This document shows positions 692 through 22,194 of a stretch of DNA of 22,194 nt, in pieces (the stretch's first letter is position 1; each line of letters begins with the position of its first letter). The translations under genes and the position numbers were made by a program. The notes below the pieces were generated by a model. That model did no database searches. It was not told the origin of the DNA and saw nothing but the letters and a program-made list of their open reading frames with translations. Source of the stretch: a virus; IMG/VR virus record IMGVR_UViG_3300009706_000070, positions 1 through 22,194 of that record. The stretch is one strand, 5' to 3'.

Positions 692-2557
692 ATGGGTATT
701 AGAGATTCTCTTAGTGGATTAAGAAAAGCATTAAGCCCAGTTAACAAAGGTTACACTGATGCTACGACTAGACCTAGTATAGCACAACCTTACATGAGTA
801 CCGATACAGGTGCTAAATTACCAATTTTCCCATTCCCACTCATTATGATCTATGAGTTGGCAGATAACATTGACGCTATTAGAATACCTATTGAAACTCT
901 TAATCGTGAGATGTTTAAGAATGGTTTTGAGATAGTAGAAAGATTCAAATACAAATGCTTAAACTGTTCAAAAACTTTCCAATATGCACCAAATATTCAC
1001 GAAGAAAGTGAAGATAAAATAGATATGGATAAAGTACAATGTGATTCATGTATGAGTTATGATATGAAAAGACCTGTACCAACACATAGAAAGATTCTTG
1101 AGGATATTATGAGTAAACCTGTAAATGGAAACATGCAAAACATGGAAGATCTTGCAAGACAATTAGAAAGAGATTTAGAGATTGCAGATAACGCTTACAT
1201 GTTATTATTAAAGAATTATTTTATTGATGATGTAACAGGAGAAATAGATCAACAGAAAACCGAAATTAAAGAACTTTTAAGAATTGATCCACCACAAGTT
1301 GCAATGATTGCTGATTCTGATGGTAGAATAGGTTATGATGATAAGAGACAAAAGATTTGGGTATGTCCTAGATTTGAACACAGAGATAAGAGACAATACA
1401 CTGACAGATGTGATGTATGTAACGCTAAATGTTTAAAAGCAATAATTGAAGTAAACTCTGTATACTCTATTGGTATACCACACCCAAAAAGAGTAATTTA
1501 CGGTGAAGGTGAAGTTATTTGGAAAGCAGGTAAATACAAACCAAGTTTAATTTATGGTCTATCTCCTATATTCGCTATATGGAGTAAGGCAATGTCATTG
1601 TCACACATGGACGAATATATTAGAAAATACTTTGATAAAATGCGTCCACCACGAGGATTACTTGTTGTTGCATCAAGAAACTATGAAACATTCAGAAAAT
1701 CATGGGACGCTTTAGAACAAAAAGCAACAGAAGATCCATACATGATACACCCACTTATGGTTGAATCTGACAAAGGTGGAAAGAATATGGCTAACTGGAT
1801 AGACTTTACTGGTTCATTACAAGAGTTACAATTCATTGAAATAAGAAAAGAACTAAGACAAATCATTGGTGCAGTATATGGTGTACTTCCATTGTACTAC
1901 GGAGAGATGGTAGGTGGTTGGTCACAAGAAGGATTACAAGTTACAATTACAAACAGAGCAGTTAAATGGGGACAAGATATTCTATTCAAATCTTTCTTTA
2001 AGAAATTTGCAGAAGTTATGGGAGTTGATGATTGGGATCTTAAACTTGTAGCAGGAGAAGAAAATGATAAACTATCAGAACTACAAAGAGAAGGTGTAGA
2101 GATTGATAATATGGCAAAACTACAACAGATGGGATTCAAGATAGAAAGAACCCATACTGGTGAATACAATATATCTAAAGAGGTTCAAGAACTTGAAAAC
2201 GAAGAACTCAAAAACGGTAGAGGTAGATCAACTGCTGCACCTGAAGAGGGAAGACAAAACGCACAAGGTGAACATGTTGAAAGTAGACCTTCTGACATGG
2301 GAGGAGTTGCACAAGGACACCCTTCATCTGGTAGTGGAACATCAATGTCACAAAAGAATTTCCCTGATGGTATAACACCTACTAACTTTGACGTAGTGAA
2401 GAAAACATTACAAACTGCAGTAGACTTTGGTTGGAAGAAAACTAAAACCGTAGAAGAGTTAAGAAAATATGCAGGTATGACAGTAAGAAATGCAAGAGAT
2501 ATAGTTAATAATGAGATAGGTATGACACAAAGGTGGGACGATGAACAAAATGACTAA
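692..2557 (+). CDS. Portal protein
   Basis: Forms the dodecameric ring at one capsid vertex through which DNA enters and leaves and to which the tail attaches. The call rests on length (621 aa), position ahead of protease and capsid genes, and a portal-like core: an N-terminal region with conserved aromatic/Pro stretches, a middle part with MSLSHMDEYIRKYFDKMRPP (about residues 301-320), and a 'GVLPLYYGEMVGGWSQEGLQ' segment (397-416) of the type found before the portal stem and crown. Residues about 500-560 are Gly/Ser/Gln-rich and likely disordered. Two cysteine clusters are inserted: C89/C92 with C117/C120, and C225, H230, C240, C243, C247, probably zinc sites. Its 3' end overlaps the next gene by 17 nt. 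Confidence 0.85.
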   Translation: MGIRDSLSGLRKALSPVNKGYTDATTRPSIAQPYMSTDTGAKLPIFPFPLIMIYELADNIDAIRIPIETLNREMFKNGFEIVERFKYKCLNCSKTFQYAPNIHEESEDKIDMDKVQCDSCMSYDMKRPVPTHRKILEDIMSKPVNGNMQNMEDLARQLERDLEIADNAYMLLLKNYFIDDVTGEIDQQKTEIKELLRIDPPQVAMIADSDGRIGYDDKRQKIWVCPRFEHRDKRQYTDRCDVCNAKCLKAIIEVNSVYSIGIPHPKRVIYGEGEVIWKAGKYKPSLIYGLSPIFAIWSKAMSLSHMDEYIRKYFDKMRPPRGLLVVASRNYETFRKSWDALEQKATEDPYMIHPLMVESDKGGKNMANWIDFTGSLQELQFIEIRKELRQIIGAVYGVLPLYYGEMVGGWSQEGLQVTITNRAVKWGQDILFKSFFKKFAEVMGVDDWDLKLVAGEENDKLSELQREGVEIDNMAKLQQMGFKIERTHTGEYNISKEVQELENEELKNGRGRSTAAPEEGRQNAQGEHVESRPSDMGGVAQGHPSSGSGTSMSQKNFPDGITPTNFDVVKKTLQTAVDFGWKKTKTVEELRKYAGMTVRNARDIVNNEIGMTQRWDDEQND

Positions 2558-7120: not shown

Positions 7121-7696
7121 ATGACTTTAGAAGAACTTAGAAAAGAAGATCATGAAGACGAGAAAGACGAAGAAGAAGATGAAAAGCATGAATCAAAAGA
7201 GAAATCCTTTGATGAAGCTTTAATTGAAACTTTGTCTACTCTAACTGAGCACGTAAAAGCTCTGTCAGATTCTCAAGCAAATCTCGAAGCACGAGTTGAA
7301 AAAGCTCTCTTTGAAGAACCAAAAACACAGTTAAATATCAAACCAAAAGAATCAGATAATGAGGACATTGGTGCTGAAGTAACTGTACCAGATACATTAC
7401 AATCCAATTCTGTGCAAGCAGGATTAGATGACGATAAATCTGGTCAAGATAAACCTGAAGGTGATAAAGCAGGATTGGCTATGCAACAAAAAGCTAATTT
7501 CGACTTTACCACAGAAACACCAAGACCAAGTGCATCTGTTGAAAACATAAACAAATCTGCTAACGTAGAATTGAATATGGTTTTGAAAGACGCAAGAGCT
7601 CAAGGTTATGAAGGTCTATCCCATGTTGCAAAAAGAATCTTAGCAGGCGATTACGGAAGCCCAGATACGACACACGATAACGGAGGGTATTATTAA
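7121..7696 (+). CDS. Acidic scaffold-like protein (191 aa)
   Basis: Very acidic at the N-terminus (residues about 5-30 are mostly Asp, Glu, Lys), then a predicted coiled coil (about 31-65: FDEALIETLSTLTEHVKALS), a low-complexity middle and a short C-terminal helix (VELNMVLKDARAQGYEGLSH). Position directly before the major capsid gene, with 1 nt between stop and next ATG, and an acidic coiled-coil composition are typical of scaffolding proteins that template the procapsid and are later degraded by the protease. It could instead act like the delta domain that HK97-type capsid proteins carry at their own N-terminus. The C-terminus (about 150-180) may bind capsid protein. Confidence 0.65.
   Translation: MTLEELRKEDHEDEKDEEEDEKHESKEKSFDEALIETLSTLTEHVKALSDSQANLEARVEKALFEEPKTQLNIKPKESDNEDIGAEVTVPDTLQSNSVQAGLDDDKSGQDKPEGDKAGLAMQQKANFDFTTETPRPSASVENINKSANVELNMVLKDARAQGYEGLSHVAKRILAGDYGSPDTTHDNGGYY
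7682..7687 (+). promoter_or_regulatory. Shine-Dalgarno site of the major capsid gene
   Basis: GGAGGG, 10 nt before the ATG at 7698. The capsid gene has no TATA box of its own and is translated from an internal site, in contrast to the leaderless genes around it. Confidence 0.7.
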
Positions 7697-7697
7697 A

Positions 7698-8915
7698 ATG
7701 CCTAAAATCCAAACTATCGACGAACTAGAAGCACTCTATTATGGATATAATAGAAACCTCATCAGAAAAGCTGACGCTCCTATCACAACATCAACTGCAG
7801 GTACATTCAATGCAGTCTTTGGTGCTTATGCATGGGCTCAACTTAACTTAGAGGCAAACGCCTTCGGTATTCTACCAAAAGTCCCTTGGGACAAATCTGG
7901 TTGGAGGGTTATTACTGACAAAGCTGTCCTTAATACAACAAACTCTAATACAGTATTAGGTGGAACAGCAGAAGGTGGACTAATTGCTCAAACAACCAAA
8001 CCTCAACTTAAAGAGATTGATGTAAAGCCAAAAACCGTTCAGTTGCCATTCAGTGCATCTGAAGTTATGGAATGGCTTGCAACACACTCTAAAGATGATA
8101 TTTGGGGAGGCTTAGGTAGTCTTAGACTATTTATGGCTGTACAGCATAAAGAGTTCCTTAACAGAATGCTTTTAGCAGATGTCGAAGTAGGTGCAGCAGG
8201 TGGTGGAGTCTATGCAGGCACACTTGACTTTGAATCACTAGACAGAATTATTTCTTCAAACGCTGAAGAAACAGTTGTCGGTGGTGTAGGTTCAAAACAC
8301 TATAATCCTTGGACTGTAAGTGCTGATATCAATAGAGATACCAACGCTATGTCAGAATTTGATTGTACTGTAGAATCAGCAAGTGGTACTTTAGGTACAG
8401 ATGGTGTACTTACCGATGACACATTACGAACTTTCCTTAGAAAGATCCGTATTGCTGCAGGTAAAGATCCAAACGTATTCCTAGGTAGTCACGAAGTTTA
8501 TTCCGAAATCCAAGGCTTGTATATGCCTTCTGTAAGAGTTGCAAACCCTTACGGTGAGAGCTTAGTACAAATCGACGTAAACGGAATCCAAACTTTCAAA
8601 GGCACTGGAGTAGGTATTCACGTAGATTCTATCTATGGAGTCCCATTCATTCCAACAAAAGATGCACCGTCATACGGTAACACAGAAATTGGAAGACTAT
8701 TTGCATTAGATACATCTGATGCAGAAGGTTATGGTTATCCAAGAATCGGAATCCAAGTAGCAATTCCTACCGAATATTACGAAGCAACCCGAAGAACTCC
8801 TGCATATCCATTTGTCAACAATGCATTTGTTGAGAAAGGTGTATACAGAACTATGGGTGAAACTGTATGTCGTCACTTCAAATCTCAAGGTAAGATCAGA
8901 GATATTAAACTCTAG
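7698..8915 (+). CDS. Major capsid protein (HK97 fold)
   Basis: 405 aa, a normal length for an HK97-fold shell protein. Recognisable features are an N-terminal arm (about 1-60), a segment GGLIAQTTKPQLKEIDVKPK (about 94-113) followed by a beta hairpin and a long spine helix (SASEVMEWLATHSKDD and onward to LFMAVQHKEFLNRMLLADVE), a P/A-domain with FLGSHEVYSEIQGLYMPS, and a C-terminal domain ending in VCRHFKSQGKIRDIKL. It lies after protease and scaffold genes, uses a strong Shine-Dalgarno site, and is followed by a T-tract. Codon choice has more C-ending codons (atc, ttc, aac) than the neighbours, consistent with high expression. Confidence 0.9.
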   Translation: MPKIQTIDELEALYYGYNRNLIRKADAPITTSTAGTFNAVFGAYAWAQLNLEANAFGILPKVPWDKSGWRVITDKAVLNTTNSNTVLGGTAEGGLIAQTTKPQLKEIDVKPKTVQLPFSASEVMEWLATHSKDDIWGGLGSLRLFMAVQHKEFLNRMLLADVEVGAAGGGVYAGTLDFESLDRIISSNAEETVVGGVGSKHYNPWTVSADINRDTNAMSEFDCTVESASGTLGTDGVLTDDTLRTFLRKIRIAAGKDPNVFLGSHEVYSEIQGLYMPSVRVANPYGESLVQIDVNGIQTFKGTGVGIHVDSIYGVPFIPTKDAPSYGNTEIGRLFALDTSDAEGYGYPRIGIQVAIPTEYYEATRRTPAYPFVNNAFVEKGVYRTMGETVCRHFKSQGKIRDIKL

Positions 8916-9009: not shown

Positions 9010-9798
9010 ATGAAATATATTGCTGTAATTCTTATATTTATGGTTTTGTTCATGAATATACCTATATATGCTGAAAATGGGGAACAACATAGTAAATATG
9101 ATACATTGAAATTAAAACATATTACTAATCCTAATGTTTGTTTGTTCGAGGTAAATCCTGAGTTGTATGATGATTGGGAGGGGTTGAGAAATATAACAAT
9201 ATCTGCAATAGAAGAATGGATAGTAAAATTAGAATATGCTTATCCTAATGGAGATTGGAATGTTCCTATAGAAACAATATCTTGGGAAGATCATAAAACT
9301 GCAAATTCATTAGATTATACTCAATGTAATATTATGATAAATTATGAAAAATCATCAAACAGTAAAACATTAGGAAATACAGGTTTAAATTTTAGTAATT
9401 CTTGGCATAAATTTATGTTCATTAATATATTTTTAGAAAGTCAAAAAAACATAACTAAGATTGTTATAGGCGATAATATATCTAATTCTACAATTAACAT
9501 GATGCAAAAAAATTATTCTTTATCAGAAAATACAATAAAAAATATTGTAATGCATGAATTTGGACATGGTTTAGGTTTAGCACATTTTAATACAAATAGG
9601 TCAATGATAGATTATACACAATCTGTAATGACACCAACAATAAAACCATTTGACGAAAATCAGATTTTATCTGTTACATATCTAGATTTAGTCATGATTG
9701 GTAAAATATATGGAGAAAACGGGTGGAATATACCAACACCAGTATTTCATATTAAAGGGTGTTATATATCAGATAGTTACATTTTTAGATGTTATTAA
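9010..9798 (+). CDS. Secreted matrixin-like zinc metalloprotease (262 aa)
   Basis: An endopeptidase that should act outside the cell. The N-terminus is a clear signal peptide (MKYIAVILIFMVLFMNIPIYA, probable cleavage near A21) with no lipobox. The active site HEFGHGLGLAH (residues 182-192) is a full metzincin HExxHxxGxxH motif: H182, H186 and H192 bind zinc, E183 is catalytic and G189 is conserved. The downstream SVMTP (M207) is the Met-turn, as in matrixins and related archaeal proteases. Cysteines C44, C106, C251 and C261 could form disulfides. It has its own TATA box and sits between capsid and decoration genes. Its wording is more AT-rich than its neighbours, suggesting late acquisition. 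The target is unknown; the S-layer is a candidate. Confidence 0.88.
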   Translation: MKYIAVILIFMVLFMNIPIYAENGEQHSKYDTLKLKHITNPNVCLFEVNPELYDDWEGLRNITISAIEEWIVKLEYAYPNGDWNVPIETISWEDHKTANSLDYTQCNIMINYEKSSNSKTLGNTGLNFSNSWHKFMFINIFLESQKNITKIVIGDNISNSTINMMQKNYSLSENTIKNIVMHEFGHGLGLAHFNTNRSMIDYTQSVMTPTIKPFDENQILSVTYLDLVMIGKIYGENGWNIPTPVFHIKGCYISDSYIFRCY

Positions 9799-13253: not shown

Positions 13254-14225
13254 ATGGTACGAACTGGTGCTCATGTATATGTAAAATACGGCTGGGAAGG
13301 AACAACTTATGGTGTTCTAGGATCAGGTCTAACAGCAGATAAAAAGTTCGGTCTTCAAGACAAAATGTCTAGTCTTACACTCACAAATAATAAAGTTAAT
13401 TTAGCTAAACTTAATCAAAATACAGTAGATAAATTTGCATACGGTCAACAACAAGGAACTGCTTCAATGTCATTTACTCTTTCAAGCCCGTGGATAATTG
13501 GTTCAATTTTAGGAACTCCAACTAAAGCAGGTACAACACCATTTACATATACATATCCTCAAACTTCAGGACTACCTAAGACAGCAAGAACTATTCAAGT
13601 AGAAGTTGGTTATGATGGACTGGCAGCAGATATAGTCAGAACATTAAAAGGTGGAATTGTAGGATCACTTTCCATAAGTGCTTCAGTAGGTGGATTAGTA
13701 GACTGTAGTGCAGATATTACTTACGGTGTAGAAACAGCACCATCAACAACCTTGACAGCAGCACCATCAAAACCAGCAGAAGAATTTCCATATACATTCG
13801 CTCATGCAGAGTTATATTTTGCAGGAGCATTAGTTGCACAATGTCAAGATGCAAGTTTAAGTCTTGCACAAAATGCAGAACTGCTTTATGGTTTAGGTAG
13901 TCATTCAGGTGCAGCAGCATACAAACGAGTCTTGGATATAACTGGTTCATTTAAAGCATCATGGTTAAATCAAACTTTACTAGATGATTTACTTGCACAG
14001 ATAGCAGCAACTCCTCAAGAAACAGTTGGTGGAGGAGCAACAGAATTTAGATTAACATTTGAAAAATCTTCTGCTGAAAAAATAGTAATAACATTGACAG
14101 GATTGGCAATAAATGATCATGGTGTCTCAGGTCTTGAACCAGTAGAACCAGTATTTGAAGATATTAGTTGGACAGCAAAGACCATATCTGTAGTAGCAAC
14201 CTCTGCAGCAACAGCAGAACAATAA
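13254..14225 (+). CDS. Major tail tube protein
   Basis: 323 aa, forming the stacked rings of the tail. It is Thr/Ala/Gly/Ser-rich and beta-dominated. The N-terminal half carries 'KKFGLQDKMSSLTLTNNKVN' and 'GQQQGTASMSFTLSSPWIIG', a pattern common in tube proteins; the second half repeats the logic with 'FAHAELYFAGALVAQCQDAS', 'LDITGSFKASWLNQTLLDDL' and 'FRLTFEKSSAEKIVITLTGL'. The two halves look like a duplicated tube fold. The location between terminator and chaperone genes is diagnostic. No sheath gene is present, so the tail should be non-contractile. It has its own TATA box, fitting high expression. Confidence 0.85.
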   Translation: MVRTGAHVYVKYGWEGTTYGVLGSGLTADKKFGLQDKMSSLTLTNNKVNLAKLNQNTVDKFAYGQQQGTASMSFTLSSPWIIGSILGTPTKAGTTPFTYTYPQTSGLPKTARTIQVEVGYDGLAADIVRTLKGGIVGSLSISASVGGLVDCSADITYGVETAPSTTLTAAPSKPAEEFPYTFAHAELYFAGALVAQCQDASLSLAQNAELLYGLGSHSGAAAYKRVLDITGSFKASWLNQTLLDDLLAQIAATPQETVGGGATEFRLTFEKSSAEKIVITLTGLAINDHGVSGLEPVEPVFEDISWTAKTISVVATSAATAEQ

Positions 14226-14256: not shown

Positions 14257-14667
14257 ATGATTAAATCGTTTGAGATCCCGTGGGACAATAATACAAAAGA
14301 AACTGTAGAATATGAAGATGATATTACATTTGGAGAATTAGAAGCAATTCTAAATCAATGTTTAGATATGACTCAGGTCAATGAACCTAAGGTTAATTTA
14401 CCACTTTATAGACAGTTAATATTAACAGCAGTAATTACAAAAGCACCTTTTAAAGTAAAAGAAGTTGCTTCAATTAGAAACCTTAAATCAAGTGTAGCAA
14501 AAACCATAATGAAGGAGGTCATGAAGGACTACCCTTTAGCGAAATATTTGGAAGAGTGGGTGGAGACTTTCGTGGGGCAGGATATAGTAGAGGCACAGGA
14601 AATATCTACTACTTCTTCGCAAGGGAATACGGTTGGACGAAAGACCAAGTCGACTCGCAGCCGATAA
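14257..14667 (+). CDS. Tail assembly chaperone, short form (G-like, 136 aa)
   Basis: The unshifted product. It begins MIKSFEIPWDNNTKETVEYE, has an acidic N-terminal domain followed by helices (FGELEAILNQCLDM, YRQLILTAVITKAPF, SVAKTIMKEVMKDYPLAKYL), the usual make-up of G-type chaperones that coat the tape measure protein before tube assembly. Its last ~42 residues (after the slip site) are Ser/Thr/Arg-rich and look like a by-product of sharing DNA with the other frame. It lies between tail tube and tape measure genes, where this gene almost always sits. Confidence 0.8.
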   Translation: MIKSFEIPWDNNTKETVEYEDDITFGELEAILNQCLDMTQVNEPKVNLPLYRQLILTAVITKAPFKVKEVASIRNLKSSVAKTIMKEVMKDYPLAKYLEEWVETFVGQDIVEAQEISTTSSQGNTVGRKTKSTRSR

Positions 14668-14735
14668 GCTATCTTAACGTTATTATATCTGAATATCAAG
14701 ACGAACAGCGTAGAGAACGTGTTAAATTTAAATAG
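14257..14735 (+). CDS. Tail assembly chaperone, frameshifted long form (GT-like, 159 aa)
   Basis: Read frame 0 from 14257 to the TTA at 14536-14538 (94 residues), slip back one base, and continue from 14538 to TAG at 14733-14735 (65 more residues). The extension runs SEIFGRVGGDFRGAG, then YSRGTGNIYYFFAREYGW, then TKDQVDSQPISYLNVIISEY and a basic end (QRRERVKFK). 'YYFFAREYGWTKDQVDSQPI' is the hallmark of T-type extensions (a short helix, 'GW....i...p...l', then a helix), which link chaperone to tube protein. No ATG exists in the -1 frame before this motif, so frameshifting is the simplest way to make it. The only GTG is at 14556. Confidence 0.82.
14512..14538 (+). promoter_or_regulatory. Programmed -1 frameshift signal
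   Basis: The heptamer C CCT TTA (14532-14538) fits X XXY YYZ exactly in the zero frame, so Pro and Leu tRNAs can re-pair on CCC and TTT. AAGGAGGT (14512-14519), a near-perfect anti-rRNA sequence inside the coding region, ends 12 nt before the heptamer, a distance like the stimulatory element of bacterial dnaX. I could not fold the downstream RNA. Confidence 0.75.
14726..14733 (+). promoter_or_regulatory. TATA box for the tape measure gene
   Basis: ATTTAAAT centred 26.5 bp upstream of the ATG at 14756. It lies inside the last codons of the frameshifted chaperone reading frame. Confidence 0.5.
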
Positions 14736-14755: not shown

Positions 14756-16564
14756 ATGAGTGCTGAAGGATTAATAGATATACCTAACCTTAAAGAGGCA
14801 CTAAAAATTCAAAAAGAATTTTTGGAATCCTCAGTTAAAATTAGATCAGCAGAACAAAGAGGTAATTTGGCAATGGATCATGCTTTGAAAGGTCAAAGAA
14901 AGGCTATGAATCTTATGACTAGACAATTCTCAGGTGGTGGAGTGCTTGGACAAGCAATGAATATGTTACAACAAGTAGGTGGAATGGGGTTACAAAACAT
15001 GCAAGATAAATCTAATCTTCGTGATAAAGTAAAAAGTGGAAAAGCAACTGATGCAGAAAAATCACAATTTAGTATGTTATCACAATCAAAATCTACAGGT
15101 ATATTTGAAAAATTAGATAAGATATTTGATAAATCATTTGGTGGTAATTCTAGATGGAATAAAATGTTTGCAGGCAAAGGTAAAATGGCAGCAGGTGGAA
15201 TGGCATTGGGTGCAGCAGGTGCAGGTGTGGGGTTAGCTTCTAAAATTATTGATTCATCTCCTTTAATGCAACAGATGATGAAATTACTTAACTTTGGTAT
15301 TATGCTTATACTTAGACCTATAGGTGACTTTTTCGGTATGCTCATGCGACCAATTTTAATAATGTTGTTACGAAAGTTTATCATACCATTCTATCAAACT
15401 GTATATCCTGTATTTCTTTCATGGGCAAGAGATATTAATGAAATTACTGAAGCTATAACTGGAGGAAACGATAGTATTAATAAAACTATTATAGACACAG
15501 GTAAAGTAGCAGTAGCCACTACTGGTACAGGATTAACTGCTATAACATCACTTCTCAAACCTAAAGAAATAGCTAAAATACCTGCATTAGCAGAGAATGT
15601 ACTTAACCCAAGGAATTTACCAGCAGTTGCAGGTAAAACTCCACCTGAATTGGAAAAATTAAAAAACATTGCAAAAACTCTTGACCCCGTTATTAAAAAG
15701 AGTGATAAAATGGTTAACATTGCATTAAAAACAACTAAAGCAATTAATATGGTTGCAACAGCTCCAATCAAAATTGCAGAAAAAGCAATTACTAAAATGG
15801 CAATACCAGTAGCTAAAGCAGCAATAGATGTAAATAAAGGAATAATGAATCTTGCAACAGGAGGATTGAGTGGTAAAGTAGATAAAAGAGTAGGGAAAGT
15901 AAGTAATAAATTAGGTGGAGCAGCAAAAACTACATTAGGTAAAGCAACTAAACCTGTTACGGAAATTTTAGCAAGAGTAGGGGTTAAAACAGGAGCTAAA
16001 ATTGCAGGAAAAACGGCTGCTAAATTTATACCTATTGTTGGACAGGCATTATTGGCAGTAGATGCAGCAGGATCTCTTATGAAACAATTTGCACCTGAAC
16101 AATATGAAGGTGTGAGAAAAGGTGCACAAGGACTTGGTAGTTTGTTAGGTGATAAAGATCATGTTTATACAGAAGGTATTTTAGACTTTTTAGGATTTGG
16201 TGAAAAATCAACTGCTGAACAACTCGTAGGAGGTGCAGGTTGGTTATCAGATAAGGTATCAGGTACAAACAGAGCTGAAGGAGAAGGAGCATTTGGTCAA
16301 GGTGGAGGTTGGTTTGGAATGGCTAATGGAGGAATGATTAGAGAACCAATTAAAGGTGTAGGTAAATCAGGTCAGAAATATAAGTTTGGTGAACGAGGTT
16401 CAGAAGCAGTAATTCCTATGGATAGAATGAGAGGAGGTGGTTCAGGCGTAACAGTAAACGTAACAGTTAATGGTAGCATATACTCAGATAGAGATATGCT
16501 TCAATTCCAAAGAACAATAATGAAAGCAATAGAGACAAGTAGTACGAGGAAGGCTAAACTATGA
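14756..16564 (+). CDS. Tail tape measure protein
   Basis: 602 aa. It sets tail length and lies inside the tube. It starts with helices (residues 1-60), then a Met/Gly/Gln-rich part, a strongly hydrophobic region at about 170-222 (LLNFGIMLILRPIGDFFGML and RPILIMLLRKFIIPF), then Ala/Lys/Thr-rich helices to about 440. The C-terminus has the classic 'GGMIREPIKGVGKSGQKYKF' and 'GERGSEAVIPMDRMRGGGSG' motif followed by VTVNVTVNGSIYSDRDM. At roughly 0.15 nm per residue, the tail would be about 90 nm; this is an estimate. The stop overlaps the next start (ATGA). The hydrophobic segments could insert into the host membrane at infection. Confidence 0.9.
   Translation: MSAEGLIDIPNLKEALKIQKEFLESSVKIRSAEQRGNLAMDHALKGQRKAMNLMTRQFSGGGVLGQAMNMLQQVGGMGLQNMQDKSNLRDKVKSGKATDAEKSQFSMLSQSKSTGIFEKLDKIFDKSFGGNSRWNKMFAGKGKMAAGGMALGAAGAGVGLASKIIDSSPLMQQMMKLLNFGIMLILRPIGDFFGMLMRPILIMLLRKFIIPFYQTVYPVFLSWARDINEITEAITGGNDSINKTIIDTGKVAVATTGTGLTAITSLLKPKEIAKIPALAENVLNPRNLPAVAGKTPPELEKLKNIAKTLDPVIKKSDKMVNIALKTTKAINMVATAPIKIAEKAITKMAIPVAKAAIDVNKGIMNLATGGLSGKVDKRVGKVSNKLGGAAKTTLGKATKPVTEILARVGVKTGAKIAGKTAAKFIPIVGQALLAVDAAGSLMKQFAPEQYEGVRKGAQGLGSLLGDKDHVYTEGILDFLGFGEKSTAEQLVGGAGWLSDKVSGTNRAEGEGAFGQGGGWFGMANGGMIREPIKGVGKSGQKYKFGERGSEAVIPMDRMRGGGSGVTVNVTVNGSIYSDRDMLQFQRTIMKAIETSSTRKAKL
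16546..16553 (+). promoter_or_regulatory. Shine-Dalgarno-like site of the distal tail gene
   Basis: GAGGAAGG, 7 nt before the ATG at 16561, within the end of the tape measure gene. It supports coupled translation across the ATGA overlap. Confidence 0.55.
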
Positions 16565-20096: not shown

Positions 20097-20243
20097 ATGG
20101 CAGGTATATTTAATTTGTTAGAAAGAATTAGTATGAAGTTTCCAACAGCAACAGGTGGATTAGATGACAAAGTCAGATTTGATGAGAAGATTAATTTTGT
20201 ATTAACAAAGGTTAATAACGATGAGATACGAGGTAATAACTGA
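20097..20243 (+). CDS. Small protein coupled to the tail fibre (48 aa)
   Basis: ATG 20097 to TGA 20241-20243. It begins MAGIFNLLERISMKFPTATG and ends NNDEIRGNN; it is mostly helical and has no cysteines. Its stop overlaps the ATG of the tail fibre gene by one base (TGATG), which argues that it is translated and coupled. Upstream there is only a weak TATA-like GTATAA and a short CCTTT/AAAGG hairpin (20076-20089). It could be a fibre chaperone or connector, but this is inference. Confidence 0.6.
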   Translation: MAGIFNLLERISMKFPTATGGLDDKVRFDEKINFVLTKVNNDEIRGNN

Positions 20244-22194
20244 TGGCACGTAAAGCAATCTATAAGCACGCAACAGAAGTCAATACATCTACTTATCCTG
20301 ATGATGGTTCTTCTCCAGTAGGAACTACTGAATGGAATGAAGATCCAGCACAACAGGGAATGTATGGTAACACACCTACAACATCAACAGTAACAATAGC
20401 CACAGGTGTATTAACTGTAACAGATTCAGTCACAGTGGCAGCAGCAGAAACAGGAACTTCAGATACTTTAGATAAATTAGCAATAACAAACACAAGTCAA
20501 TATGATTTGATATATCTTTTTGCAGATACAGGAGATACAATTACATTAACAAATACTTCAAGTTTAGCAGCATCAGGACAGGTACAAACTATTAGTGGTG
20601 CAGATGAAGTATTATCTACAACCAAACCTACAATCCTAATTAGAAAAGGAAGTTACTGGTATGGTTATGGTGGAGGAACTACAGCAGATGGATCAGTTAC
20701 AAATATCAAACTTGCAGATATGGCAGCAAATACAATTAAAGTTAGAGATTCAAGTTCAGCAGGAGTGCCATCAGATAAAGCAGTAGGAACTACTGAAATC
20801 CTTATAGGAGATGGAACAGGATTTACAGCAGCAGCACTTTCTGGAGATGCTACAATGACCAATGCAGGTGTAGTTAGTGTAGCAACATTAAATCAAAATA
20901 CAACAGGAAGTTCAGCAAGTTGTACAGGTAATTCTTCAACAGTAACAACCAATGCAAACTTAACAGGTGGAGTAACAAGTGTCGGTAATGCTGCCACAGT
21001 AGTAACCAACGCTAATCTTACAGGAGATGTAACAAGTGTAGGTAATGCAACTACAACCGTAACCAATGCAAACTTAACAGGAATTGTAACTTCAACAGGT
21101 AATGCTACAGCTATAGCAAACGGTGCTATCGCAACAGGTAAAATTTCAGGTTTTGATACTCAAGTACAAACAAGTAGACTAGATCAAATGGCTACAGCTA
21201 CAGCAGATGTAGCATTAGGATCACAAAAAATTACAGGATTAGCAGATGGTACAGCAGCACAGGACGCAGCAACTAAAAATCAAGTTGATGTAGCCCAAGC
21301 AGGATTAGACGCAAAAGATTCATGTAGAGTAGCAACTACTGCAAATATTACATTAAGTGGAGAACAAACTATCGATGGAGTAACAACTACAACAGATAGA
21401 GTTTTAGTTAAAAATCAAACAACAGGATCACAAAATGGTATCTATGTTTCAGCAAGTGGAGCATGGGCAAGATCAACTGATGCAGATGCAAGTGTAGAAG
21501 TAACAGCAGGTTTATACACTTTAATCACAGAAGGTACAACTTTAGCAGGTCAAGGATTTGTATTAACCACAGATGATCCAATTACAGTAGGCACTACAGC
21601 ATTAACTTTCTCACAATTCTCAGGAGTAGGAGATCTTGTAGGAGGAACAGGAATTACAAAGACTGGAAATTCAATAGCAGTAGATGCAAGTCAAACACAG
21701 ATCACATCAGTAGGAGCTCTTGGTACAGGTTCTATCACATCAGGATTTGGAGCTATCAATAATGGTTCATCAACAATTACAACCACTGGTGCAGTAGCAA
21801 CAGGTGCATTAACTGTAACAGGTACAATCACAGGTGCTTTAACTGGTAACGTAACAGGAGATGTAACAGGCTCATCAGGCAGTACAACTGGTAACGCTGC
21901 AACAGCAACTACAGCAACTACAGTAACAGATGATGCAATTACATTAGCAAAAATGGCATCAGGAACAGATGGTAATTTAATCACTTATGATACTAATGGA
22001 GATCCAGTAGCAGTAGCAACTGGAACAGCAACCCATGTATTAACTTCAAATGGAGCAGGAGCAGCACCAACATTCCAAGCAGCAGCAGGTGGATCAACAT
22101 TAGCATATACTCCGTTTGCAAATAATGCATCTACAACATACGCAGGAAATCAAACAGTATTCACTACAGTCGGTGTAGGAGAAAGAGATATTTA
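20243..22194 (+). CDS. Tail fibre protein, 3' end beyond the window
   Basis: Open from ATG 20243 to the window end with no stop (650 codons plus 2 bases). It begins MARKAIYKHATEVNTSTYPD. It is a low-complexity Thr/Ala/Gly/Ser protein with motifs shared by receptor-binding fibres of marine phages: FTAAALSGDATMTNAGVVSV, 'KITGLADGTAAQDAATKNQV', QNGIYVSASGAWARSTDADA, and 'ATHVLTSNGAGAAPTFQAAA'. A 19-residue repeat 'VTNANLTGxVTSxGNAxxx' occurs three times in tandem, with a degenerate fourth copy before it. It probably trimerises and binds the host surface. The end is truncated by the window, not by mutation. Confidence 0.85.
   Translation, partial: MARKAIYKHATEVNTSTYPDDGSSPVGTTEWNEDPAQQGMYGNTPTTSTVTIATGVLTVTDSVTVAAAETGTSDTLDKLAITNTSQYDLIYLFADTGDTITLTNTSSLAASGQVQTISGADEVLSTTKPTILIRKGSYWYGYGGGTTADGSVTNIKLADMAANTIKVRDSSSAGVPSDKAVGTTEILIGDGTGFTAAALSGDATMTNAGVVSVATLNQNTTGSSASCTGNSSTVTTNANLTGGVTSVGNAATVVTNANLTGDVTSVGNATTTVTNANLTGIVTSTGNATAIANGAIATGKISGFDTQVQTSRLDQMATATADVALGSQKITGLADGTAAQDAATKNQVDVAQAGLDAKDSCRVATTANITLSGEQTIDGVTTTTDRVLVKNQTTGSQNGIYVSASGAWARSTDADASVEVTAGLYTLITEGTTLAGQGFVLTTDDPITVGTTALTFSQFSGVGDLVGGTGITKTGNSIAVDASQTQITSVGALGTGSITSGFGAINNGSSTITTTGAVATGALTVTGTITGALTGNVTGDVTGSSGSTTGNAATATTATTVTDDAITLAKMASGTDGNLITYDTNGDPVAVATGTATHVLTSNGAGAAPTFQAAAGGSTLAYTPFANNASTTYAGNQTVFTTVGVGERDI
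20885..21115 (+). repeat. Tandem 57-bp repeats in the tail fibre gene
   Basis: Three clear units coding TTNANLTGGVTSVGNAATV (20945-21001), VTNANLTGDVTSVGNATTT (21002-21058) and VTNANLTGIVTSTGNATAI (21059-21115), preceded by a diverged unit (TLNQNTTGSSASCTGNSSTV, 20885-20944). Synonymous differences between units show that they are old enough to have drifted. Confidence 0.8.

What the first reader, a model, noticed from the sequence alone, without database searches (positions are those of the whole stretch)
14512..14735. Programmed -1 frameshift producing a G/GT tail chaperone pair in an archaeal virus
Seen: a perfect X XXY YYZ heptamer (C CCT TTA, 14532-14538) in the zero frame; AAGGAGGT ending 12 nt upstream; a -1 frame open from 14487 to 14735 carrying a T-type motif (YYFFAREYGWTKDQVDSQPI); no ATG in that frame. 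Known: G/GT frameshifting is conserved in tailed bacteriophages, and an upstream anti-rRNA sequence stimulates -1 slippage in bacterial dnaX. Few such cases are documented in archaea, so a Shine-Dalgarno-stimulated slip here would be notable. Bases 14538-14667 are constrained in two frames and visibly richer in G and C than neighbouring genes.
Basis: partly seen in the sequence, partly recalled or inferred. Interest (0 to 1): 0.8.

Follow-up and report, generated by a model that had tools for sequence, protein, structure and literature searches.

The report
Ribosomal frameshift in archaeal virus tail gene
Viruses of ammonia-oxidising archaea appear to make two tail-building helper proteins from one gene by letting some ribosomes slip back one base at an invariant slippery sequence, helped by an upstream sequence that pairs with the host ribosome; this bacterial-style arrangement had not been tested in these archaea.

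Summary
[quoted passage not shown] CCCTTTA (14532-14538) lies in frame, 12 nt after AAGGAGGT, and a T-like domain is open in the -1 frame to 14735. All 80 untruncated relatives from a first pair of searches keep CCCTTTA, as do all 80 from a third; they cover 81 distinct sequences, G down to about 37% identity. The three slip codons never vary synonymously (expected about 45%). T beyond the G stop is under protein selection (median dN/dS 0.25). In 9 of 37 sequence clusters T has no possible start codon. An anti-16S pairing block sits upstream, far beyond codon-usage expectation (0 of 1000 shuffles), although these viruses' own G starts lack Shine-Dalgarno sequences. No conserved downstream RNA structure was found. 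A relative carries amoC 97% identical to Nitrosopumilus, so the host is very probably an ammonia-oxidising archaeon. The modelled G fold best matches YqbN and the HK97 tail assembly chaperone. G/GT -1 frameshifting was already proposed in haloarchaeal viruses, so this is a new variant of a known kind. New: host lineage, invariant CCCTTTA, Shine-Dalgarno element. No experiment was possible.

The parts
13254..14225 (+). Tail tube protein gene, directly upstream of G
   Evidence: Pfam Phage_tube_2 E 3e-21; tblastn to HCTV-1 gene 121, 28% identity
14257..14667 (+). G: tail assembly chaperone, zero-frame product, 136 aa
   Evidence: ORF; 81 distinct relatives; fold match to YqbN 3klu (Z 8.1) and HK97 chaperone 2ob9 (Z 4.5); BFVD tail assembly chaperones
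14512..14519 (+). AAGGAGGT, internal Shine-Dalgarno-like element, complementary to ACCTCCTT at the 3' end of Nitrosopumilaceae 16S rRNA
   Evidence: Mean duplex energy -10.8 kcal/mol over 37 clusters against -4.6 for codon shuffles, 0 of 1000 reach it; 16S end GGATCACCTCCTT
14532..14538 (+). Slippery heptamer C CCT TTA where ribosomes are inferred to slip -1
   Evidence: Invariant in 37 of 37 clusters and in all untruncated relatives; codons never vary synonymously
14538..14735 (+). T: -1 frame extension of the GT product, 65 codons from 14538 plus the TAG stop at 14733-14735; fusion predicted 159 aa
   Evidence: Conserved IYYF.A.EFGW..E.VD motif; dN/dS median 0.25 beyond the G stop; AF2 model helical
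14538..14667 (+). Dual-coding overlap of G and T
   Evidence: GC 47.7% against 29-37% nearby; raised codon identity in 14581-14667
14756..16564 (+). Probable tape measure gene, directly downstream of T
   Evidence: Position and a 602-aa ORF; only weak, unnamed PHROG matches, so the name rests on gene order and length

Best explanation
The locus is the G/GT tail assembly chaperone cassette of a tailed virus of ammonia-oxidising archaea (Nitrososphaeria). Most ribosomes translate the 136-aa G protein. A fraction reach CCU (P site) and UUA (A site) of C CCU UUA while the anti-Shine-Dalgarno end of their 16S rRNA pairs with AAGGAGGU about 12 nt upstream. The pairing strains or pauses the ribosome, both tRNAs re-pair one base back on CCC and UUU, and translation continues at AGC in the -1 frame to 14735. 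The product is a GT fusion of about 159 aa (junction ...KDYPL-SEIFGR..., or ...KDYPF-SEIFGR... if the P-site tRNA slips alone and the next tRNA reads UUU). By analogy with phage lambda, G coats the tape measure protein and the T part recruits the tail tube protein. Shown by sequence: the heptamer, the -1 coding frame, the anti-16S block and their conserved arrangement, and the lack of a conserved T start codon. Inferred: that slippage occurs, its efficiency, that the block stimulates it, and the roles of G and GT.
For: CCCTTTA is present in every untruncated relative: 80 loci and 80 of 80, in all 81 distinct sequences, with G identity down to about 37%. The heptamer's first C is kept although the codon holding it encodes Tyr, His or Phe. 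Slip codons: 1.00 identical against 0.45 expected. T beyond the G stop: median dN/dS 0.25 over 71 pairs. In L048 and L050 the -1 frame opens only 3 nt before the heptamer, and 6 nt before in L066, L068 and L072, so entry must be at or after the heptamer. The anti-16S block gives mean -10.8 against -4.6 kcal/mol, z about -13, peaking at -26 to -20, and is made from different amino acids (KEV, SEV, EGV, KEI, AGV). The viruses' own G starts show none of this (0 of 37), while all 37 internal 20-mers reach -7 kcal/mol. Host-type 16S carries the complement. A host-type genome has tRNA-Pro(GGG), which would pair better with CCC than with CCU. The modelled G fold ranks YqbN and the HK97 chaperone first and second. 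Gene order tail tube, G/T, tape measure.
Against: No protein, ribosome profiling or reporter data. No conserved downstream structure. tRNA-Leu(UAA) was not found by ARAGORN among the tRNAs read from one host-type genome, possibly because of introns. The codon-shuffle test treats clusters as independent although they share ancestry; singly, most clusters reach only p 0.02-0.07, and three (L026, L044, L055) are not significant at all. The HK97 match is modest (Z 4.5), and Foldseek found no PDB match below E 0.001 for either model. T resembles known chaperone families only weakly (phrog_9001 in 5 of 37 members, best E 0.007).
Confidence: 0.88

Rival explanations
1. T is a separate protein started by internal initiation, at the GTG at 14556 or after the internal Shine-Dalgarno.
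For: NTG at +24 is ATG, GTG or TTG in 28 of 37 clusters, and a strong Shine-Dalgarno lies upstream.
Against: It is CTG, with no other start in the open frame, in 9 of 37 clusters. The TG is forced by the invariant Trp codon TGG of G. The Shine-Dalgarno lies about 36 nt before it, too far to serve it, and pairing near it is weak. This would not explain CCCTTTA being invariant.
Confidence: 0.04
2. G and T are joined by -1 slippage at CCCTTTA, but the GGAGGT block is not a stimulator and reflects amino-acid constraint or chance.
For: Several single clusters are not significant, and the KEV/GV amino acids themselves favour G-rich codons. Haloviral counterparts show no excess (p about 0.7).
Against: Pooled over 37 clusters no shuffle of 1000 reaches the observed value, and the rare codons GAG and GTC are used in an AT-rich genome. 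The block persists while amino acids change.
Confidence: 0.15
3. The frame change is made by transcriptional slippage rather than by ribosomes.
For: Some phage and bacterial genes use this (general knowledge; PMC5009743).
Against: It needs long A or T runs; here there are only CCC and TTT, conserved in exact codon register.
Confidence: 0.01
4. The -1 frame is a sequencing error or a decayed remnant of a once-continuous gene.
For: Single contigs can carry indel errors.
Against: The same arrangement occurs in 81 distinct sequences from many samples, with purifying selection on T.
Confidence: 0.01

Closest known systems
G/GT frameshift of haloarchaeal viruses HVTV-1, HCTV-1, HCTV-5 (Druskaviridae)
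   Same: Joined tail assembly chaperone CDS between tail tube and tape measure (in HCTV-1 two small genes intervene before the tape measure), -1 slip at X XXY YYZ; the portal (HVTV-1, HCTV-1, HCTV-5, HCTV-16) and tail tube (HCTV-1, HCTV-16) are the nearest named matches to this window
   Different: Their heptamers are GGGAAAC, AAAAAAC (HCTV-2) or GGGAAAG (PMC5009743); no pairing excess in the upstream block tested (p about 0.7); different host lineage; no G sequence similarity found
Phage lambda and other dsDNA phage G/GT tail assembly genes
   Same: Gene order, -1 frameshift near the end of G, T as a C-terminal extension (PMC5009743)
   Different: Archaeal host; invariant CCCTTTA; a Shine-Dalgarno-like stimulator; no detectable sequence similarity
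E. coli dnaX and IS-element -1 frameshifting with a 5' Shine-Dalgarno stimulator
   Same: A Shine-Dalgarno about 10-12 nt upstream of a -1 heptamer (PMC5009743)
   Different: Heptamer A AAA AAG in dnaX; dnaX also needs a downstream stem-loop, not found here
HK97 tail assembly chaperone (2ob9) and Bacillus YqbN (3klu)
   Same: Similar predicted fold for G residues 1-95 (Z 4.5 and 8.1)
   Different: 7-11% sequence identity only

Membership tests
G/GT tail assembly chaperone cassette | Lies between tail tube/major tail protein and tape measure genes | tested here: met
   Tail tube by Pfam E 3e-21 upstream; 602-aa ORF directly downstream, tape measure by position and length only
G/GT tail assembly chaperone cassette | Slippery heptamer near the 3' end of G opening a conserved frame | tested here: met
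   All untruncated relatives keep CCCTTTA and the -1 frame
G/GT tail assembly chaperone cassette | T made only as a fusion, without its own start | tested here: met
   9 of 37 clusters have no ATG/GTG/TTG in the open -1 frame up to the G stop
G/GT tail assembly chaperone cassette | G has a tail assembly chaperone fold or sequence | tested here: met
   3klu Z 8.1 and 2ob9 Z 4.5 at ranks 1 and 2; BFVD chaperones at E 3e-4 to 7e-3; no family match by sequence
G/GT tail assembly chaperone cassette | GT fusion protein exists in cells | not testable with these tools
   Needs mass spectrometry or a reporter
Shine-Dalgarno-stimulated -1 frameshifting (dnaX type) | Anti-16S block about 10-14 nt upstream of the heptamer, beyond chance | tested here: met
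   0 of 1000 codon shuffles over 37 clusters; host-type 16S complement present
Shine-Dalgarno-stimulated -1 frameshifting (dnaX type) | Downstream stem-loop | tested here: not met
   Mean z -0.3 to -0.8, close to control regions; alifold consensus empty. So it is not filed as a dnaX-type member; it is only said to work like one in its 5' element
Shine-Dalgarno-stimulated -1 frameshifting (dnaX type) | Removing the block lowers frameshifting | not testable with these tools
   Needs a reporter assay
Tailed viruses of ammonia-oxidising archaea | Link to an archaeal host | tested here: met
   amoC in relatives G002 and G003, the former 97% identical to Nitrosopumilus; portal hits in the phage collection only to haloarchaeal viruses; no amoC was recognised in the window itself

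The most novel reading that the evidence does not exclude
Ribosomes of ammonia-oxidising archaea use their anti-Shine-Dalgarno to drive -1 frameshifting in a virus that starts its own G gene without any Shine-Dalgarno, so that in this gene the rRNA element serves recoding rather than initiation; one invariant heptamer, CCCTTTA, has been kept across the whole virus group without a structural stimulator.
Probability: 0.6. Interest if true: 0.7.

Novelty: new variant of a known kind. Interest (0 to 1): 0.57.

Why it matters
Recoding in archaea rests on very few cases, and -1 frameshifting in archaeal tail genes was known mainly as a prediction in a handful of haloviruses. This group gives 81 distinct sequences in which slippery site, reading frame and an anti-16S element are kept together, which is strong comparative evidence that archaeal elongating ribosomes use anti-Shine-Dalgarno pairing as bacterial ones do. 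It also bears on annotation: T is likely to be missed or called as a separate gene in viruses of major marine nitrifiers.

Tried and rejected
Downstream stimulatory RNA structure: z-scores close to control regions, empty alifold consensus. Internal start codon at 14556: not conserved. Transcriptional slippage: no homopolymer run. Shine-Dalgarno-like element in haloviruses: visible by eye in HVTV-1 and HCTV-1 but no excess in the block tested (p about 0.7). Provirus in Nitrosopumilaceae genomes: two short contigs among 250 genomes carry a related portal; the G profile found nothing in those two genomes, and the contigs are only 3.9 and 8.5 kb. Genome scan with G: no relative. G against the phage collection: none. 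PDB Foldseek for G and T: nothing significant. One script run used a wrong frame step and falsely reported no heptamers; corrected.

Full report
What is there. The ORF 14257-14667 encodes 136 aa. CCCTTTA at 14532-14538 is read TAC CCT TTA in that frame, AAGGAGGT is 14512-14519, and the -1 frame is open 14487-14735. Upstream is a tail tube gene (Phage_tube_2, E 3e-21) and downstream a 602-aa ORF in the tape measure position. This is the canonical place for a G/GT cassette.

Relatives. Searches of viral contigs gave 81 loci, one of them truncated before the site, and a third search gave 80 records, largely overlapping. Every untruncated one has CCCTTTA in frame: 60 distinct sequences from the first two searches and 21 further from the third. 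The 60 distinct sequences fall into 37 clusters below 85% nucleotide identity; in all 37 the seven bases are invariant. G identity to the window falls to about 37%. The codon carrying the first C is TAC, CAC or TTC, so the base is kept while the amino acid changes.

Selection. Using codon identity among same-amino-acid pairs, the three codons of the slip site are identical in all pairs (1.00 against 0.45 expected), while upstream G shows 0.51 against 0.52. In the overlap the first part, 14539-14580, shows no synonymous excess (0.52 against 0.54); the second part, 14581-14667, does (0.75 against 0.50). T codons beyond the G stop give a median dN/dS of 0.25 over 71 pairs, which are not independent of each other. 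The T motif IYYF.A.EFGW..E.VD is conserved.

Where the frames join. In L048 and L050 the -1 frame opens 3 nt before the heptamer, and in L066, L068 and L072 6 nt before it; entry therefore lies at or after the heptamer. The only recurrent start-like codon, at +24, is CTG in 9 of 37 clusters, and those have no other start in the open frame up to the G stop. Internal initiation therefore cannot be the general mechanism.

The anti-16S block. The 16S rRNA of four genomes of this group ends GGATCACCTCCTT. For the 15 nt at -23 to -9 the mean duplex energy over 37 clusters is -10.8 kcal/mol; 1000 codon shuffles that keep the protein and the viruses' codon usage average -4.6 and never go below -6.3. 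The signal peaks just there along the gene; a second, weaker G-rich stretch lies after the heptamer. Singly the test is weak, since most clusters give p 0.02-0.07 and three are not significant; the strength is in the pooled pattern and in the block being rebuilt from different amino acids. Shared ancestry makes the pooled number optimistic. The viruses' G starts have no such pairing (0 of 37 at -7 kcal/mol or better, mean +0.26), against 37 of 37 internal 20-mers; the capsid gene and one other gene in the window do have one, so initiation with a Shine-Dalgarno probably also occurs. No downstream structure is conserved.

Identity of G and T. AlphaFold2 models: G mean pLDDT 79.5, T 75.5 with a confident helical part. 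Among the PDB chains Foldseek ranks highest, VIA-align puts YqbN 3klu first (Z 8.1, 2.8 A, 85 residues) and the HK97 tail assembly chaperone 2ob9 second (Z 4.5), above the unrelated rows (3.0 and below). In BFVD four matches pass E 0.001, among them a Bacillus phage tail assembly chaperone, and a haloarchaeal one (Haloarcula hispanica tailed virus 2) follows at 0.0017. Sequence libraries name nothing for G and give only weak chaperone hits for T.

Host. Two related contigs carry amoC; one was read as a 187-aa protein, 97% identical to Nitrosopumilus AmoC, the other begins MAQIPALLPKEVEIQ. The portal finds only haloarchaeal viruses in the phage collection, and a related portal is present in two Nitrosopumilaceae assemblies. 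PMC8651126 reports capsid and portal trees in which marine archaeal viruses, including those of Thaumarchaeota, intermingle with HVTV-1 relatives, which agrees. The host of the window itself is inferred from its relatives.

Mechanism. The arrangement fits tandem slippage: tRNA-Pro(GGG), present in a host-type genome, would pair better with CCC than with CCU, and a tRNA-Leu reading UUA can re-pair on UUU as at the HIV-1 site U UUU UUA (general knowledge). The internal Shine-Dalgarno at about 12 nt matches the spacing at which such elements stimulate -1 slippage in bacteria (general knowledge; PMC5009743 for the element itself). Efficiency and the actual protein remain unmeasured.

Comparison. 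G/GT -1 frameshifting has been proposed in HVTV-1 and HCTV-1, -2 and -5 (PMC5009743, PMC8211752); the annotations of HVTV-1, HCTV-1 and HCTV-5 join the two frames. Hardycor1 (PMC7911831) has another such heptamer. Their heptamers differ from this one, and the upstream block tested in three of them shows no excess. A 5' Shine-Dalgarno stimulator is established for E. coli dnaX and many IS elements (PMC5009743). I found no paper in the library that describes this in viruses of ammonia-oxidising archaea; subscription papers, including the original halovirus reports, were not readable here. The finding is therefore a new variant of a known kind, with strong comparative support.

Noticed in passing
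window 692-2557, residues about 557-607: The C-terminal ~50 residues of the portal match short, partly tandem ORF segments in about 20 Nitrosopumilaceae genomes that lack the rest of the portal.
   Followed up: no
window 9010-9798: A predicted matrixin-type (M10) metalloprotease directly follows the capsid gene; relatives carry amoC in the same part of the structural module.
   Followed up: partly
L102 and L103: Two viral contigs carry an apparently intact amoC inside the capsid-tail gene region.
   Followed up: partly
window 7682-7698: The capsid gene, unlike most genes of the window, has a strong Shine-Dalgarno (GGAGGG) before its start, while most other starts look leaderless.
   Followed up: partly
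window 20240-22194: A repetitive, low-complexity, tail-fibre-like frame runs off the right end of the window.
   Followed up: no
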